From Eublepharis macularius (Eukaryota; Chordata; Lepidosauria; Squamata; Eublepharidae): a stretch of 64,000 nucleotides of DNA. Location: assembly GCF_028583425.1 (NCBI RefSeq), contig NC_072795.1:4177001-4241000 (forward strand), read 5' to 3'. This document shows, piece by piece, positions 9,913-63,800 of this stretch (the stretch's first letter is position 1; every line of letters starts with the position of its first letter). The notes beneath the pieces were generated by a model. That model searched no databases. It saw nothing but the letters and a program-made list of their open reading frames with translations, and was not told the DNA's origin. Position numbers and translations under genes: made by a program.

Positions 9913-10067
9913 TGTTCCTTTTCCAGTTCGGCTTCCAGTTCTCCCATTTTTAGCAAAATCTATCGGACTTCTGCCCCCTGATTCTGAAAGCAAGGACTGC
10001 AAAATGATCAGGGTCCTCCTGGCTACTGACGGGTGATCTCTCTTCTGCTTGAACTCAACTTTGGTCA

Positions 10068-10253
10068 TAGATCAAGATGGGTAGCCATGTTAGTCTGTCT
10101 GTGGCAGCAGAAAAGAGCAAGAGTCCAGTAGAACTTATAAAACTAACAAGATTTGTTGCAGGGTATGAGCTTTCGTGAGTCACAGCTCACTTCTTCAGAT
10201 ACCACAAATTTTATTAGTCTTATAGGTGCTACTGGACTCTTGCTCTTTTCTAA
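10068..10253 (-). mobile_element. Hammerhead-like repeat family copy, 186 bp
   Basis: Two inverted arms ('aagagtccagtagaacttat' at the left, 'gctactggactcttgctctt' at the right) flank a stem-loop. On the minus strand from 10198 it reads CTGAAGA, A, GTGAG, six bases, CTCAC, GAAA. Direct repeats 'tttggtca' lie at 10060-10067 and 10254-10261. The stem pairs GTGAG/CTCAC where other copies have GAGAG/CTCTC. Confidence 0.65.
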
Positions 10254-10317
10254 TTTGGTCAGAAATTGTGAGCTGCATCTGCATAAAACTCAAAAAATGC
10301 TCACATTTTATGGAGTG

Positions 10318-21300: not shown

Positions 21301-21514
21301 GTTGGGGGGGGAGGCTAAAATACGCTTAAATTAGAGGTTTGATAGATCATTGGATCAATAGAGTCAGCACACGAGTTTAGCTTTTAAAATCATTTACTTC
21401 TAAAGGGAAAAAGGTTCACAGGATGTCTACAAAATATCATATCAGAAGCTACTGTTTGCATCTACCCCGCCCTCCCCTCTCCACCTATATATCTGGCCAG
21501 TTTCTTCTTGCCCT

Positions 21515-21650
21515 CCATGCAGCTGACGAAGAGAACTGTGATTCTCGAAAGCTTATGCTACAATAAAGTTGGTTGGTCTTAAAGGTGCTACTGGACTCTT
21601 TTTGATTTTGCTACTACAGACTAACACGGCTAACTCCTCTGCATCTACAA
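21515..21650 (+). mobile_element. Hammerhead-like repeat family copy
   Basis: From 21523: CTGACGA, A, GAGAA, six bases, TTCTC, GAAA, then AGC-TTAT-GCT and A at 21560. 'caataaagttggttggtctt' and 'gtgctactggactctttttg' follow. The GAGAA/TTCTC stem is a paired variant of GAGAG/CTCTC. Confidence 0.65.
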
Positions 21651-32099: not shown

Positions 32100-32345
32100 T
32101 AATTTTTTTTTTGTAATCTTCGTCCTGTGTCTCATCCTATTGATTGCATTGACTTATACTGTGTAATTTGCCCCGAGTCTCAGTGAGAAAGATGCAGAGG
32201 CGTTAGCCGTGTTAGTCTGTAGTAGCAAAAACAAAAAGAGTCCAGTAGCACCTTTAAGACTAACCAGCTTTATTGTAGCATAAGCTTTTGAGAATCACAG
32301 TTCTCTTCGTCAGATGCAGTGAGAAAGGCGGACTATAAACAAAAG
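32100..32345 (+). mobile_element. LINE 3' tail split by a hammerhead-like repeat
   Basis: 'ttgccccgagtctcagtgag' upstream continues as 'gagaaaggcggactataaac' downstream of the insertion at 32192-32316. Confidence 0.6.
32192..32316 (-). mobile_element. Hammerhead-like repeat, one arm, 11-bp duplication
   Basis: Single arm from 'atgcagaggcgttagccgtg' to 'tctcttcgtcagatg'. The 11-bp direct repeat 'cagtgagaaag' flanks it (32181-32191, 32317-32327). The stem reads GAGAA/TTCTC on the minus strand. Confidence 0.75.
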
Positions 32346-32398: not shown

Positions 32399-32565
32399 AT
32401 TTCCTGCATTGTGCAGGGGGCTGGTTTAGATGACCCTAGGGATCCCTTCCAACCCTATGATTCTATGATTCTATGATCTGACGAAGAGAGCTGTGACTCT
32501 CGAAAGCTTATGCTACAATAAAGTGGGTTAGTCTTAAAGGTGCTACTGGACTCTTTACTATTTTA
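32399..32565 (+). mobile_element. CR1 3' tip followed by a hammerhead-like repeat arm
   Basis: 32399-32476 is a CR1 end ('gatgaccctagggatccctt'). From 32478: CTGACGA, A, GAGAG, six bases, CTCTC, GAAA, AGC-TTAT-GCT, A, all core positions present. It then runs to 'gctactggactctttactat'. Confidence 0.7.
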
Positions 32566-32695
32566 CTTAGAAGAATGTGGCCTGAATTCACAGGGGTCAC
32601 TTCCACATAAGTATTTCAATGCAAACTTGGGCATTAGCCCTGGGAAATATCATCAGATTTACTTCCAAGTAAACATGGAGAGGATTTAAATCTTT

Positions 32696-34480: not shown

Positions 34481-35085
34481 TGTACACCAGCTTACTGCCT
34501 TGGACTCCGAGATGCTAAGATTGCATCATTAAAATGAAATGTCTTTGATATTGACGGTAATGGCTCATACTGTGTGATCAGCCTCAGGCTGACAAACAAA
34601 CTAATAAATGTTTTACATGCTTTAATGTCTGATGTTTGCCTCCATGGGGGACCTTATTTGGGCGGAAAGGCGGCATATAAATTTTAAACAAATCAAATAA
34701 ATATTGACATAAAAAGTGTTACACTCCTTCTGTTGCTGGGGAGGAAAATGAAATTAGTGGAATAAAAACCAACATTTCCCCAGAAAACATTGGGTGAAGA
34801 GAATTGACTTGAAAATGGATTTGAGTTCTAAGTTTCAGGCATGAAATTAATCATTGAGAGAAAGCTGGCATCGAATTCATTCCCTGTTTCTGCTTCTATA
34901 CCTAGGCTGACGTTTGCCTTGACTGTCAGCATGTTTACACCAACTGGACTTGGCAAATTCAGGTTTTTTGACAGGTGTCCTTTAACGCTGGTTTGTTTTT
35001 TAAAAATTCATGATGTTTTATTACTTATGACTTCTGCCTGTTACTTCAGGGGGCTTTTAGCAGAGAAGGTCATAGCTGGGAGGGA
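34481..35085. other. LINE-like tail at 34650-34705; rest unique
   Basis: 'gggcggaaaggcggcatata' with 'aaattttaaacaaatcaaat' is a LINE-type tail. Nothing else is supported. Confidence 0.4.
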
Positions 35086-35114
35086 GGGAGGGAGGCAGGA
35101 AGGTAGGTAGCTGA

Positions 35115-35190
<76 letters not shown>

Positions 35191-35260
35191 AGGAAGGAAG
35201 GAAGGAAGGAAGGAAGGAAGGAAGGAAGGAAGGAAGGAAGGAAGGAAGGAAGGAAGGAAG
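35086..35260 (+). repeat. (GAAA)n and (GGAA)n microsatellite
   Basis: About 19 GAAA units (35115-35190) run into about 17 GGAA units. On the reverse strand this reads as Ser/Phe/Leu/Pro-rich frames that are artefacts. Confidence 0.95.
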
Positions 35261-36395
35261 TGTTGGCCTGTAGTAGAAGAGCAAGATTGGAGTCCAATAG
35301 CATCTTAAAGACAAAGGAGATTTCCAAGGAAGGAAGGAAGGAAAAGAGGGAAAGGAAGGAAGGAAGAAAAAGAGGGGAAGGAAGGAAGGAAGTGTTGGCC
35401 TGTAGTAGAAGAGCAAGATTGGAGTCGAAGAGCATCTTAAAGACAAACGAGATTTCCAAGGAAGGAAGGAAGGAAAAGAGGGGAAGGAAGGAAGGAAGAA
35501 AGGAAGGAAGGAAGTGTATTGTCGAAGGCTTTTACGGCCGGAGAACGATGGTTGTTGTGGGTTTTCCGGGCTGTATTGCCGTGGTCTTGGCATTGTAGTT
35601 CCTGACATTTCTTTTCCACACTGTGACACTGAGAGATCTCTGTCTTTTGGTGCTACACCTCTGAAGATGCCAGCCACAGCTGCTGGCGAAACGTCAGGAA
35701 CTACAATGCCAAGACCACAGCAATACAGCCCAGAAAACCCACAACAACCATCGAAGGAAGGAAGTGTTGGTCTGTAGTAGAAGAGCAAGATTGGAGTCGA
35801 ATAACATCTTAAAGACAAACAAGATTGCCAAGGAAGGAAGGAAGGAAAATAGGGGAAAGAAGGAAGGAAGTGTTGGCCTGTAGTAGAAGAGCAAGATTGG
35901 CGTAGAAGAGCATCTTAAAGACAAACTAGATTTCCAAGGAAGGAAGAAGGGAAGGAAGGAAAAGAGGGGAAGGAAGGAAGGGTTGGCCTGTAGTAGAAGA
36001 GCAAGATTGGCGTAGAAGAGCATCTTAAAGACAAACTAGATTTCCAAGGAAGGAAGAAGGGAAGGAAGGAAAAGAGGGGAAGGAAGGAAGGGTTGGCCTG
36101 TAGTAGAAGAGCAAGATTGGCATAGAAGAGCATCTTAAAGACAAACTAGATTTCCAAGGAAGAAAGAAGGGAAGGAAGGAAAAGAGGGGAAGGAAGGAAG
36201 GGTTGGTCTGCACTGCAGCAGAAGAGCAAGATTGGCCTGGAATAAGATCTTAAAGACAAACTAGGTTTCCAAGGAAGGAAGGAAAGAAATGTTGGTTTGG
36301 GGCAGAAGAGCAAGATTGGAGTCGAAGAGCATCTCAAAGACAAACGAGATTTCGAGGGTAGGAGCTTTGGCGAGTCGGAGCTCCGACAGAAAAAG
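35261..36395 (+). repeat. Array of about 110-bp units with GGAA spacers
   Basis: Units start at 35261, 35393, 35765, 35871, 35981, 36091, 36201 and 36290. Each holds 'tgtagtagaagagcaagatt', 'catcttaaagacaaac' and 'gatttccaaggaagg', then GGAA/GAAA runs. Spacing is 106-110 bp in the central part, and those copies are almost identical. The last unit continues into 'agctttggcgagtcggagct', the hammerhead-like part of the parent repeat. Confidence 0.85.
35515..35754. mobile_element. Inverted-repeat insertion inside the array (Penelope-end-like)
   Basis: 'cgaaggcttttacggccgga' at the left; the right part ends 'aaaacccacaacaaccatcg', inverted to 'gatggttgttgtgggttttc'. The centre has CTGAAGA, T, GCCAGC, seven bases, GCTGGC, GAAAC. 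The text resembles squamate repeat ends that I associate with Penelope-like elements. Fossil; no coding part. Confidence 0.55.
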
Positions 36396-39265: not shown

Positions 39266-39639
39266 AAGATTCAGCAATTAAAATTATATATATACAAAAA
39301 CCTGATATAGTTTGATAGGTAGGTAGGATAGGTGGGTAGGTAGATGGGGAGATAGAGAGAAGTCTTTCTTTCATAAAGGAAATTGTCCTCTAAAAGAGCC
39401 AGGCCCCTTACCTTGTGGCAAGAGATATTTGGATCGGATCCATTACTATATGACATGACTTACACAGTTTAGGGGTTTTTTGATTTGCATTTCAGTTCTG
39501 TAATTCTAGTCCTTTTACATGGTTTATGGGAGGGCTTTGTTTTCTGACTGAAATGCATTTCATATTTTGTAATATGCCCTGGGCCTGAGCGAGAGAGCTG
39601 GGCTATAGATGGGAACGACGACGCTGATGTTGTTAAATG

Positions 39640-39840
39640 GTAAAGAGTCCAGCAGCACCTTTAAGATGAACCAACTTTATTTCAGCATGTGCTTTCGAGA
39701 ACCACAGCTCTCTGTTAGATGCAGAGAGCTGTGGTTCTTGAAAACTTATGCTATAATGAAGTTGCTTAGTCTTAAAGCTGCTACTGGACTCTTTACTGTT
39801 TTGCAGCTACAGATTAACACGGCTAACTCCTCTGGGTTGA
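39640..39840. mobile_element. Hammerhead-like repeat family copy, decayed core
   Basis: Inverted arms 'agagtccagcagcaccttta' and 'agctgctactggactcttta'. The stem GAGAGC/GTTCTT still pairs with wobble, and the right end is 'cggctaactcctctgg'. Confidence 0.6.
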
Positions 39841-39996
39841 TGATGTTGTTGATGCTTTCTGGCAGATCTTGTGGTTTATTGTTTTTATTGTTTTTATTGT
39901 TTTTATTGTTCTGGATAGTTTAGGTTGATTTGATTTAGGGGACACTTTGATATTGTAAAAATATTACTGATTTGATAGTTATTGTCTATCCTTTCC

Positions 39997-40525: not shown

Positions 40526-40598
40526 AATCTCTTGCCCACCAGCTGGAATGCAGGAAGAAGAGTCTGTTATGACTATCTCAGTGCCCAGGCAAGACTAG

Positions 40599-40944
40599 TA
40601 AAGAGTCCAGTAGCACCTTTAAGACTAACCAACTTTATTGTAGTATAAACTTTTAAGAACCACAGCTCTCTTTGTCAGATGCATCATCAGCTTTCAAGAA
40701 CCACAGCTTTCTTCATCAGATACATTGTCAGCTTTCGAGAACCACAGCTCTCTTTGTCAGATGCATCATCAGCTTTCGAGAACCACAGCTCTCTTCATCA
40801 GATGCATGATGATGCATCTGACAAAGAGAGCTGTGGTTCTCGAAAGTTATGCTACAATAAATCTGGTTAGTCTTAAAAGTGCTACTGGACTGTTTACTAT
40901 TTTGCAACTACAGACTAACATGGCTAACTCCTCTGGATCTATGA
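40599..40944. mobile_element. Hammerhead-like repeat, long form, 14-bp duplication
   Basis: 346 bp between direct repeats 'ccaggcaagactag' (40585-40598) and 'ccaggcaagtctag' (40945-40958), one mismatch. Four reverse motifs lie in a row (40630-40800), then a plus motif from 40818. The reverse motif ending at 40801 has an intact CTGATGA, A, GAGAGC, TGTG, GTTCTC, GAAA core. Confidence 0.75.
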
Positions 40945-41019
40945 CCAGGCAAGTCTAGTTAGTGTTGACACTTGTTGCTTTTTTAGCATAAGCCCCCGTG
41001 GGAACTTTTTGTTGGGAAA

Positions 41020-57038: not shown

Positions 57039-57047
57039 TAAAACTTT

Positions 57048-57284
57048 CCATGGTCATAGATCCAGAGGAGTTAGCCGTGTTAGTCTGTAGTTGCAAAATA
57101 GTAAAGAGTCCAGTAGCACTGTTAAGACTAACTTTATTGTAGCATAAGCTTTCGAGAACTGCAGCTCTCTTCGTCAAATGCATCTGACAATGCATTTGAC
57201 GAAGAGAGCTATGGTTTTCAAAAGCTTGTGCTGCAATAAAGTTGGTTAGTCTTAAAGGTTCTACTGGACTCTTTACTATTTTGC
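57048..57284. mobile_element. Hammerhead-like repeat, two-arm form, 9-bp duplication
   Basis: 237 bp between direct repeats 'taaaacttt' (57039-57047, 57285-57293). Left arm 'agatccagaggagttagccg', right arm to 'gactctttactattttgc'. Both cores have base changes. Confidence 0.75.
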
Positions 57285-57293
57285 TAAAACTTT

Positions 57294-60415: not shown

Positions 60416-60542
60416 GATCTTGCATCAGTATGTACATGCTATCAAGCCACAACCGACTGATGGGAACCTCAACCAGGGGCTTTCAAGGCAAGTGAGAAGC
60501 CGAGGTGGCTTGCCGGTGCCTTCTTCTGCACATAGATCCAGA

Positions 60543-61080
60543 GCAGTTAGCCGTGTTAGTCTGTAGTAGCAAAATAGCAAAGAGTCCAGTCGCCCCTTTA
60601 AGACTAACCAACTTTATTGTAGCATAAGCTTTCGAGAGCCACAACTCTCTTCATCAGATGCATCATCAGATGCATCTGACGAAGAGAGCTGTGGCTCTCG
60701 AAAGCTTATGCTACATCTGACGATGCATCTGACGAAGAGAGCTGTGGCTCTCGAAAGCTTGTGCTACATCTGACGATGCATCTGACGAAGAGAGCTGTGG
60801 CTCTCGAAAGCTTGTGCTACATCTGACGATGCATCTGACGAAGAGAGCTGTGGCTCTCGAAAGCTTATGCTACATCTGACGATGCATCTGACGAAGAGAG
60901 CTGTGGCTCTCGAAAGCTTGTGCTACATCTGACGATGCATCTGACGAAGAGAGCTGTGGCTCTCGAAAGCTTATGCTACATCTGACGATGCATCTGACGA
61001 AGAGAGCTGTGGCTCTCGAAAGCTTATGCTGCGATAAAGTTGGTTCGTCTTAAAGGGGTGACTGGACTCTGCAATTTTCC
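60543..61080. mobile_element. Hammerhead-like repeat with an expanded right arm
   Basis: Left arm 'agatccagagcagttagccg' to the reverse core at 60620-60657 (CTGATGA, A, GAGAG, six bases, CTCTC, GAAA, AGC-TTAT-GCT, A on the minus strand). The right side holds seven plus-strand cores in tandem, then 'gataaagttggttcgtctta' and 'gggtgactggactct'. Confidence 0.8.
60676..61046 (+). repeat. Seven tandem 53-bp units, each with a hammerhead-like core
   Basis: Cores start at 60676, 60729, 60782, 60835, 60888, 60941 and 60994. Each reads CTGACGA, A, GAGAGC-TGTG-GCTCTC, GAAA, AGC-TTAT (or TTGT)-GCT, then A (G in the last). The units are almost identical; the TATG/TGTG site alternates A,G,G,A,G,A,A. Linker 'catctgacgatgcat'. 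Confidence 0.9.
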
Positions 61081-61175
61081 TCTGCACAGCCTTCCGTGGT
61101 GGTTCCCCCATCCAAGTGCTGACCCTGCTTCGCTTCTGAGATCTAACAAGGTTGGCCCATGCCGTGCCTCCTTCC

Positions 61176-62277: not shown

Positions 62278-62634
62278 CACGGCGTTAGCCGTGTTAGTCT
62301 GTAGTTGCAAAATAGTAAAGAGTCCAGTAGCACCTTCAAGACTAACCAACTTTATTGGAGCATAAGCTTTCGAGAACCATAGCTCTCTTCGTCAGACGTA
62401 GCAAAATCTTCCCATGGCCCTTACTGTGCCTAAAGTGTAGTGTATTCTCTGTAAAATAAAAAAGAGTCCAGTAGCACCTTTAACCAACTTTACTGTAGCA
62501 TAAGCTTTCGAGAACCACAGCTCTCTTCGTCAGATGCATTGTCTGCTTTCGAGAACCGCAGCTCTCTTCGTCAGATGTAGCAAAATCTTCCCATGGCCCT
62601 TACTGTGTCCAAAGAGTAGTGTATTCTCTTTGTG
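62278..62634 (-). mobile_element. Hammerhead-like repeats within a duplicated segment
   Basis: Reverse cores end at 62395, 62533 and about 62574. The flank 'gtagcaaaatcttcccatgg' with 'cccttactgtg' and 'gtagtgtattctct' occurs at 62398-62452 and again at 62577-62632, 179 bp apart, so flank and repeat were duplicated together. Confidence 0.75.
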
Positions 62635-63399: not shown

Positions 63400-63800
63400 T
63401 GGTGGCCGAACGTCTGCTTGGCATGTAGAAAGTCTCAGATACAACCCTCGGTGTCCCTAGTCAAAAGTTTTAGGTGGGCAGCCGTGTTGGTCTGCAGTAG
63501 AACAGCAGGGTTTGAGTCCAGTGGCACCTTGGAGAGCCACAAGATTTCCAGGGTGGAAGCTTTCAAGAATCGAAACTTCTTTCTTCAGATACCTGACTCT
63601 TGAAAGCTTCCACCCTGGAAATCTTGTGGCTCTCCAAGGTGCCACTGGACTCAAATCCTGCTGTTCAGTCAAAAGGATTCCAGTAGATTTAAAAGACCTC
63701 TGCCAGAAGCCCTGGAGAGCGTTTGCCAGGCTGAGCAGGCCATGCTGACCTTGATGGACTGATGGTTTGATTCAGCGTCAGGCAGCTTCATGTTTTTGGG
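63400..63800 (+). mobile_element. SINE (GCATGTAGAAAGTC type) split by a hammerhead-like repeat
   Basis: Head 'gtctgcttggcatgtagaaa', tail part 'gatggactgatggtttgatt' and 'cagcgtcaggcagcttcatg'. Interrupted at 63468-63666. Confidence 0.6.
63468..63666. mobile_element. Hammerhead-like repeat, AAGAA/TTCTT subfamily, 9-bp duplication
   Basis: Direct repeat 'agtcaaaag' on both sides (63459-63467, 63667-63675). Arms 'gagtccagtggcaccttgga' and 'caaggtgccactggactcaa'. On the minus strand from 63588: CTGAAGA, AAGAA, seven bases, TTCTT, GAAA. Confidence 0.75.

What the first reader, a model, noticed from the sequence alone, without database searches (positions are those of the whole stretch)
60620..60713. 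Dispersed repeat family with a hammerhead-ribozyme-like core and a covarying stem
Seen: many copies read CTGANGA, stem, GAAA, then AGC-TTAT-GCT and A. These are the hammerhead core blocks in order (C3-A9, stem II, G12-A14, A15.1/U16.1, H17). Stem II changes in pairs between copies: GAGAGC/GCTCTC (60684), GAGAG/CTCTC (32486), GAGAA/TTCTC (21531), GTGAG/CTCAC (10190, minus), GAGTTC/GAACTT (34393), AAGAA/TTCTT (63580, minus). Known: Penelope-like retroelements carry hammerhead motifs in their terminal repeats. Inferred: this family is a non-autonomous relative or relic of such elements. Against activity: most copies have an extra A between CTGANGA and the stem, and stem I does not pair in the standard way.
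Basis: partly seen in the sequence, partly recalled or inferred. Interest (0 to 1): 0.72.

Follow-up and report, generated by a model that had tools for sequence, protein, structure and literature searches.

The report
ORF-less Penelope-type repeat with hammerhead motif
A short, very abundant repeat in this animal genome looks like a protein-free passenger of Penelope-type jumping genes and carries a small hammerhead-type RNA-cutting motif at its front end; the motif has not been tested for activity.

Summary
In detail: the window holds a dispersed ~125-bp repeat whose front carries CTGANGA, a hairpin and GAAA in hammerhead order. The stated spot is the centre of one head-to-head inverted insertion.

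The fold needs correction. AGC-TTAT-GCT is probably not helix III. A helix-III-less fold, as in Penelope-like elements (PLEs), pairs GCAU before the core with AUGC after GAAAGCUU; this stem I covaries (GCAU/AUGC, GUAU/AUAC) and moves the predicted cut to after U17. A second, Poseidon-like insertion in the window has an extra base at the same place as the 'extra A'.

The repeat shows PLE insertion hallmarks: 8-11 bp target duplications, head-to-head pairs, and a ~38-bp 'tail' on one arm only. Ends lie +77 to +82 and +114 to +126 nt from stem II; the Anolis Poseidon enzyme starts at +111 to +118. Some copies read head, ~120-165-bp non-coding spacer, head. One 21-mer has 30,811 exact copies genome-wide.

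Most likely: a non-autonomous PLE mobilised in trans, with a minimal hammerhead of unproven activity. No coding partner was found, but the genome search answered only once and most fetched stretches were too short to show one.

The parts
60525..60532 (.). left target-site duplication TCTGCACA of the insertion that holds the finding
   Evidence: exact 8-bp match to 61081-61088; chance P 0.02 for this locus
60533..60663 (-). minus arm, head to tail, ends +117 from stem II start ('tail' type)
60622..60661 (-). hammerhead-type motif, minus copy: stem I GCAU 60661-60658 / AUGC 60625-60622, C3 60657, stem II 60649-60644 / 60639-60634, GAA 60633-60631, A15.1 60630, U16.1 60627, U17 60626, predicted cut 60626|60625
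   Evidence: read from sequence; the MFE fold shows both stems
60669..61030 (+). 53-bp tandem array of heads, 6.8 copies
60672..60711 (+). first plus-strand hammerhead-type motif: stem I GCAU 60672-60675 / AUGC 60708-60711, C3 60676, predicted cut 60707|60708
   Evidence: read from sequence
60988..61080 (+). plus arm without tail (ends +79)
61081..61088 (.). right target-site duplication TCTGCACA
10060..10261 (.). inverted pair A10 (minus arm with tail, plus arm without), TSD TTTGGTCA; subfamily with stem I GUAU/AUAC and H17 = C
21457..21648 (+). single copy B21 with ~50 bp 5' extension incl. TATATAT, TSD TGCATCTAC
32181..32327 (-). single copy C32 minus, TSD CAGTGAGAAAG
32473..32567 (+). copy C32 plus without tail; no target duplication found
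35516..35752 (.). second PLE-type insertion (inverted pair): hammerhead C3 35661, ATG 35667 overlapping A9, one-base (T) insertion, stem I CCU/AGG, AC-rich end CCCACAACAACC, ~34-bp tail on the left arm only; its target duplication is ambiguous in a GGAA repeat
   Evidence: read by eye
39625..39850 (.). inverted pair G39, TSD TGATGTTGTT
40585..40953 (.). inverted pair H40 with a 41-bp head array, TSD CCAGGCAAG
57039..57293 (.). inverted pair I57, TSD TAAAACTTT
62281..62577 (-). tandem copies K62, K62b, K62c
63459..63675 (.). inverted pair L63 (older subfamily), TSD AGTCAAAAG

Best explanation
The repeat is a non-autonomous (ORF-less) Penelope-like element. Its unit is a ~125-nt head (hammerhead-type motif, a stem-loop closed by GTTAGTCT/AGACTAAC, an AC-rich end) followed, in the longer copies, by a ~120-165 bp non-coding spacer with a TATA-like box and then a second head, like the pLTR-body-pLTR layout of PLEs. 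Inferred cycle: transcription starts near head position 1-6, so the motif sits at the RNA 5' end. A PLE protein supplied in trans binds the head RNA and makes a staggered cut. It starts reverse transcription at either of two sites (about +80 or +114 to +126 from stem II), on both target strands. The two cDNAs join head to head, which gives an inverted pair with one tailed and one tail-less arm between target duplications. The motif is a minimal, helix-III-less type I hammerhead (stem I 4 bp, stem II 6 bp, A15.1-GC-U16.1, H17 = U or C) that may trim multimeric transcripts, probably as a dimer or with protein help. Shown here by sequence: anatomy, end positions, target duplications, pairing and covariation of stems I and II. 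Inferred: trans-mobilisation, promoter, cleavage.
For: Target duplications of 8-11 bp at 8 of 15 window loci examined, each with chance P of 0.02 or less, all 6 inverted pairs among them; 8 of 14 fetched distinct inverted pairs have a common word of 7-14 bp (no per-locus P; the 7- and 8-bp ones, L061 and L080, may be chance). In all 6 window pairs one arm ends at +77 to +82 and the other at +114 to +126 from stem II; by model end, 14 of 18 distinct script-picked pairs have exactly one tailed arm. In Anolis Poseidon, reverse transcription starts 111-118 bp into an ORF that begins at stem II, the tail lies between two start sites, and the enzyme cuts and extends both strands (PMC11167929, main-text section read). 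A typical Penelope has inverted head-to-head pLTRs, a 31-bp tail optional on one of them and short target duplications (8-10 bp in the examples) (PMC3846280, passages). Head-spacer-head on one strand: 20 instances, of which at least five look like segmental duplicates by eye. One stem I pair is C-G in 15, U-A in 7, U-G in 1, unpaired in 8 of 31 copies. Stem II: 5 of 6 pairs change on both sides. A second PLE-type copy in the window has its ends at about +81 and +115 from stem II, by eye.
Against: No reverse transcriptase or GIY-YIG domain was found, but only 20 of 76 window ORFs of 110 aa or more were scanned; the genome-wide PF01541 request did not complete (first, last). 40 of the 71 stretches fetched from this genome are 1.0-2.3 kb long, too short to show a coding body. 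No Rfam hammerhead hit. Folds are only mildly better than shuffles (z -1.4 to +0.6), and 3 of 8 heads have both hammerhead stems as MFE. In one search two of five covariation measures are ordinary: pairs changed on both sides 36 of 500 shuffles, further pair types 48 of 500. Six 41-bp array units left out of that alignment (three at 40.7 kb, one at 62.6 kb, two in L083) have G where H17 should be. The spacer is rare in position-sampled DNA plus window (1 hit against 57 arms). 12 of 14 head-spacer-head clusters show no clear target duplication at the bounds used. Arm 5' ends cluster at positions 1-6 (42 of 57, array units included), not at the predicted cut after 39, so most insertion templates are not the 3' cleavage product. 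The stem I change may be one old event. In Poseidon the ribozyme is not needed for insertion in vitro.
Confidence: 0.65

Rival explanations
1. The repeats are only 5'-truncated copies and pLTR fragments of an ordinary protein-coding PLE, with no separate ORF-less lineage.
For: PLEs are 5'-truncated on insertion (PMC8969392, passage); most copies are heads only; the spacer could be an internally deleted body.
Against: A similar ~120-165 bp spacer joins two heads in 20 instances, duplicates included. That no head with a longer body was seen is weak, since 40 of 71 fetched stretches are 1.0-2.3 kb.
Confidence: 0.3
2. The hairpin is kept as a protein-binding or structural element of the PLE RNA; the hammerhead likeness is a non-catalytic remnant. 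(Compatible with the PLE part of the best explanation.)
For: Poseidon hammerhead mutants insert normally in vitro and the motif does not cut without protein (PMC11167929); the extra base is fixed (30 of 30), and other natural core insertions were poorly active (PMC3088659); arm 5' ends do not sit at the predicted cut.
Against: Stem I, A15.1, U16.1 and H17 fit hammerhead rules in most of 31 copies, old subfamilies included, which a plain hairpin would not need.
Confidence: 0.45
3. A foldback/MITE-like DNA transposon whose inverted arms are terminal inverted repeats.
For: Six window loci are inverted pairs with target duplications.
Against: Two single arms also have target duplications (B21, C32 minus); duplication length varies (8-11 bp in the window, 7-14 among fetched pairs); arm ends are of two kinds, one of each in 6 of 6 window pairs and 14 of 18 script-picked pairs; tandem head-spacer-head copies.
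Confidence: 0.04
4. The reader's fold with helix III AGC-TTAT-GCT and a cut after A.
For: It pairs in most copies (78.3% of cells, against 76.4% for stem I), and one of eight single heads (32473, whose stem I 5' strand is partly flank) folds that way as MFE.
Against: Where the shared G is A (12 of 31), its C partner stays C in 11, while the stem I partner is T in 7; it leaves stem I unpaired.
Confidence: 0.1
5. Inverted pairs arise by self-priming on an antisense template and not by extension of both target strands.
For: Proposed for rotifer Penelope from palindromic junctions (PMC3846280, passage); the head starts with the palindrome GATGCATC.
Against: It does not by itself predict one tailed and one tail-less arm per pair; the Poseidon enzyme extends both strands.
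Confidence: 0.3

Closest known systems
Poseidon of Anolis carolinensis (PAc), a Penelope-like element (PMC11167929)
   Same: [quoted passage not shown] two reverse-transcription start sites bracketing a tail; end position +111 to +118; AC-rich stem-loop
   Different: PAc has an ORF starting at stem II and a partly tested, protein-assisted ribozyme; this family shows no ORF in the head and an untested motif
Typical Penelope layout in Adineta vaga (PMC3846280, passages)
   Same: Inverted head-to-head pLTRs, optional tail on one arm, short target duplications (8-10 bp in examples), palindromes at inverted junctions
   Different: There the body is an ~840-aa ORF; here a ~120-165 bp non-coding spacer
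Metazoan non-LTR retrozymes (PMC7229834, passages)
   Same: Non-autonomous, ~300-bp unit, dimers and multimers, type I hammerhead
   Different: Canonical hammerheads there; here the helix-III-less PLE form with PLE tails; linear and circular RNA not tested
Short nonautonomous Penelope elements of Heliconius (PMC6685494, passages)
   Same: Short PLEs called nonautonomous
   Different: No anatomy or ribozyme described in the passages seen

Membership tests
Penelope-like elements (non-autonomous) | tail of 30-40 bp on some copies, optional, on one arm of inverted pLTRs | tested here: met
   6 of 6 window pairs; 14 of 18 script-picked distinct pairs by model end
Penelope-like elements (non-autonomous) | short target-site duplications | tested here: met
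   8 of 15 window loci at P 0.02 or less; 8 of 14 fetched inverted pairs with a 7-14 bp common word; only 2 of 14 head-spacer-head clusters
Penelope-like elements (non-autonomous) | pLTR-body-pLTR, often with an inverted pLTR | tested here: met
   head-spacer-head in 20 instances, duplicates included; L079 is an inverted double of it with a 13-bp duplication
Penelope-like elements (autonomous) | RT plus GIY-YIG endonuclease ORF | tested here: inconclusive
   none in 20 of 76 window ORFs scanned; genome-wide request did not complete
Hammerhead ribozyme, minimal type I (PLE form) | C3UGANGA9, GAA, A15.1-U16.1, H17 | tested here: met
   31 aligned copies: C3 27 of 31, U4 30 of 31, G5 28 of 30, A6 30 of 30, G8 26 of 29, A9 29 of 29, G12 25, A13 28, A14 30, A15.1 30, U16.1 28 and H17 31 of 31; six array units left out of these 31 have G at position 17
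Hammerhead ribozyme, minimal type I (PLE form) | stems I and II next to the core | tested here: met
   stem I 76.4% and stem II 87.1-96.8% of cells paired, with covariation; one extra base between A9 and stem II
Hammerhead ribozyme | match to an Rfam hammerhead model | tested here: not met
   of little weight, since the PLE-type motif at 35661 is missed too
Hammerhead ribozyme | self-cleavage at H17 | not testable with these tools
   needs a bench assay
Metazoan retrozyme | linear and circular monomer RNAs | not testable with these tools
   needs RNA

The most novel reading that the evidence does not exclude
The family is a PLE-mobilised retrozyme: an ORF-less, ~260-290-bp, hammerhead-bearing element that has copied itself in roughly 10^5 numbers through a PLE protein. 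It would give structural evidence for the proposed but unproven link between PLEs and metazoan retrozymes (suggested in PMC7761336, passage), with single insertions recording synthesis from both target strands at two different RNA start sites.
Probability: 0.35. Interest if true: 0.7.

Novelty: new member of a known kind. Interest (0 to 1): 0.5.

Why it matters
A review proposes that PLEs move ORF-less ribozyme elements and calls the role of PLE hammerheads a mystery (PMC7761336, passage). A family with tens of thousands of copies, PLE end signatures and a covarying minimal hammerhead would be a natural data set for both questions. The one-tail-per-pair pattern also makes a prediction about how the PLE enzyme uses its two start sites.

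Tried and rejected
Rfam searches: no hammerhead hit; the best-scoring hits outside one search are miRNA models that match the inverted repeats as hairpins. Relatives in plasmids and phages: none. Viral contigs: 0 matches for the head pattern; 32 matches to a 16-base tail pattern, 0 of 32 with the family's other blocks within 130 nt upstream. One genome contigs match in Shewanella reads like coding sequence and lacks the rest of the repeat: chance. 19656 (minus), found through GCGAAACATTAGGA, is not a PLE head.

Idea that 41-bp head arrays are jumps onto cleaved 5' fragments: junctions lie at about 37-38 at three loci but at about 45 in the 60.7-kb array; dropped as unexplained. Idea that inverted partial heads ending near 43 mark the cut: they belong to a different related element; dropped. 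The 3' stem GTTAGTCT/AGACTAAC pairs well (86.7% of cells) but only one pair has changes on both sides and two measures are no better than shuffles: weak.

Rows left out: alignment A3 (31 rows: 18 window, 13 fetched) leaves out window array units H40u1-u3, J60u2, K62c, the other units of the 60.7-kb array and arm G39p, the L083 array units 4932 and 4973, the L092 hit, and arms without a full head. Some A3 rows (C32p, L083_3314p, L087_2297m, L095 rows and a few more) begin inside the head, so part of their 5' stem I strand is flank. The script missed pairs H40 and J60 (arrays between the arms); they enter only by hand. One search removed 4 of 22 pairs as segmental duplicates; L035 counts as one-tailed by model end, but its anchor-based ends (66 and 75) do not show it. 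L034-L081 cover only the first part (up to 9.46 Mb) of the 100 places listed.

Full report
What is there. The stated interval is the middle of one insertion. A minus copy of a ~125-bp repeat (60533-60663) lies head to head with a plus-strand array of 53-bp head units (60669-61030) that runs into a plus arm (to 61080); the whole is flanked by TCTGCACA. Related arms occur at about 15 places in the window, from about 93% down to about 62% alike to one seed copy. Genome-wide, GAAAGCTTATGCTACAATAAA has 30,811 exact matches in 2.24 Gb, with 0 for the backward control. In 200 kb taken at 20 spaced places on one contig, a broader model finds 23 arms at E up to 0.01, which would extrapolate to a few 10^5; that figure is rough.

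More than chance. The relaxed pattern has 26 matches against 2.8 expected. Copies of one family are not independent, so a test on a single consensus is fairer: 0 of 200,000 shuffles hold core, stem II, GAAA and a helix III, and 8 of 200,000 hold core, stem II and GAAA.

The fold. Read that way the head is GCAU | CUGANGA | A | GAGAGC-UGUG-GYUCUC | GAA | A15.1 GC U16.1 | U17 / AUGC, with stem I of 4 bp next to the core and the cut after U17. RNAfold gives these two stems, plus one isolated pair, for the consensus and for 3 of 8 single heads; z-scores are modest (-1.4 to +0.6). On 31 copies (18 from the window, 13 from 10-kb stretches chosen by position only) stem I pairs in 76.4% of cells. Its pair next to the outermost one is C-G in 15, U-A in 7, U-G in 1 and unpaired in 8. 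Of the five whole-structure measures, three are reached by 0 of 500 shuffles, but pairs changed on both sides by 36 and further pair types by 48. In the helix III alternative the same column has lost its partner in 12. The 2x2 of C/T against G/A gives 15, 1, 3, 7, Fisher P = 0.0013 without correction for relatedness; it could be one old event. Position 17 is U in 25 and C in 6 of these 31, but six 41-bp array units left out of the alignment have G there, so in those arrays the rule fails. Stem II has changes on both sides at 5 of 6 pairs. The extra A is present in 30 of 30 copies with a letter there. [quoted passage not shown] other natural core insertions tested were poorly active (PMC3088659).

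An internal control. At 35516-35752 lies a different insertion, found by the same script: an inverted pair with CTGAAGA-T-GCCAGC..GCTGGC-GAAACGTC, stem I CCU/AGG, and an ATG that overlaps A9, so that C3 and G8 precede the start codon, as the paper states for Poseidon of Anolis (PMC11167929). It has one extra base at the same place, an AC-rich end at about +81 from stem II on one arm and a ~34-bp longer end (about +115) on the other, by eye. I infer a Poseidon-like PLE; the text I read does not print that element's head, so identity was not tested. RNAfold does not give the 3-bp stem I in hammerhead register there as MFE, and Rfam does not hit this motif either.

How it inserts. For 15 window loci the longest common word between the outer flanks was compared with random right flanks. 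Eight loci have 8-11 bp at P 0.02 or less: A10, B21, C32 minus, G39, H40, I57, J60, L63. C32 plus, D34, E37a, E37b, F38 and K62b have no significant word (D34: 7 bp, P 0.06); K62 has a 7-bp word inside the element (P 0.04) that I do not count. The six inverted pairs are all among the eight. Measured from these duplications, one arm of each pair ends +77 to +82 and the other +114 to +126 nt from the start of stem II. From 48 loci fetched near the first part of the 100 listed exact 21-mer places (biased to young copies and to duplicated DNA) and the window, the script picked 22 pairs, 18 after removal of duplicates. Fourteen of 18 have exactly one tailed arm by model end; exceptions are L045 and L079 (both tailed, L079 being the inner arms of a larger inverted insertion), L068 (none) and L069 (tailed and shorter). 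For L035 the anchor-based ends disagree with the model ends. A common word of 7-14 bp is present in 8 of 14 fetched pairs. In Anolis Poseidon, reverse transcription starts 111-118 bp into the ORF, the tail is the stretch between two start sites, and the enzyme cuts and extends both strands; no difference in start site between strands was seen there, so that work does not by itself explain one tail per pair here. In rotifer Penelope, head-to-head inverted pLTRs, a 31-bp tail optional on one of them, junction palindromes and 8-10 bp duplications are described. I infer that each pair is one event in which both target strands primed synthesis; self-priming remains a rival.

The unit. 25 of 68 loci (L034-L101) carry a shared spacer. 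Head, spacer, head on one strand occurs in 20 instances, of which at least five look like segmental duplicates by eye; the gap is 119-165 bp in 17 and 244-247 in three (L054, L062, L063, where another repeat seems inserted). The spacer ends in CTATATTTGACCAGT, with TATATTT about 23-25 nt before the head. 42 of 57 arms in the position-sampled DNA plus window begin at head positions 1-6 (array units included), which fits a transcript start there. The longest stop-to-stop frame across one head-spacer-head (389 bp, L070) is 86 aa. In the position-sampled DNA plus window the spacer has 1 hit against 57 arms, so most copies are heads only. Of 14 head-spacer-head clusters tested, 2 show a clear duplication (L051, L079); the bounds of several others are uncertain because of a neighbouring related element.

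What it is. Best reading: an ORF-less member of the Penelope-like elements, moved in trans, with a minimal hammerhead at its front. Works like: a PLE pLTR. Member of: PLEs by insertion anatomy; the coding feature was not found, with a limited search. The hammerhead passes most sequence and pairing tests; activity is untested, and for Poseidon cleavage needed the protein and was not required for insertion in vitro.

Limits. I recall similar repeats from reptile genomes, which no call confirms. The two key papers on PLE hammerheads (Cervera and de la Pena 2014; Lunse 2017) are not held. A search for six phrases on non-autonomous or solo PLEs listed two papers: the rotifer paper, and one with a passing mention of short nonautonomous Penelope elements in butterflies. 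A search for four letter strings of the repeat listed five papers whose titles do not concern it. A search on retrozymes in reptiles was badly posed and says nothing. Whether the family is already in a repeat database could not be tested.

Noticed in passing
window 35081-36289: GGAA-rich 110- and 132-bp tandem arrays whose units carry a divergent copy of the 3' part of this family
   Followed up: partly
window 40650-40807, 62536-62578; L083 4891-4973: 41-bp head-only arrays with the junction GAAAGCTGAYRATGCATC, or a close variant of it, at three loci; the base at hammerhead position 17 is G there; origin unexplained
   Followed up: partly
L046, L064, L067, L070, L075, L078: A third related element (head with GAAAGCCCAC.. 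and a GGTGCCACTGG-like block) sits inverted against head-spacer-head copies
   Followed up: no
G000:C1 2.0-9.5 Mb (L034-L081): Several fetched loci look like segmental duplicates of composite repeats holding this family
   Followed up: partly
window 32455-32472: ATTCTATG microsatellite that looks like a CR1 3' end (recalled), directly before copy 32473
   Followed up: no
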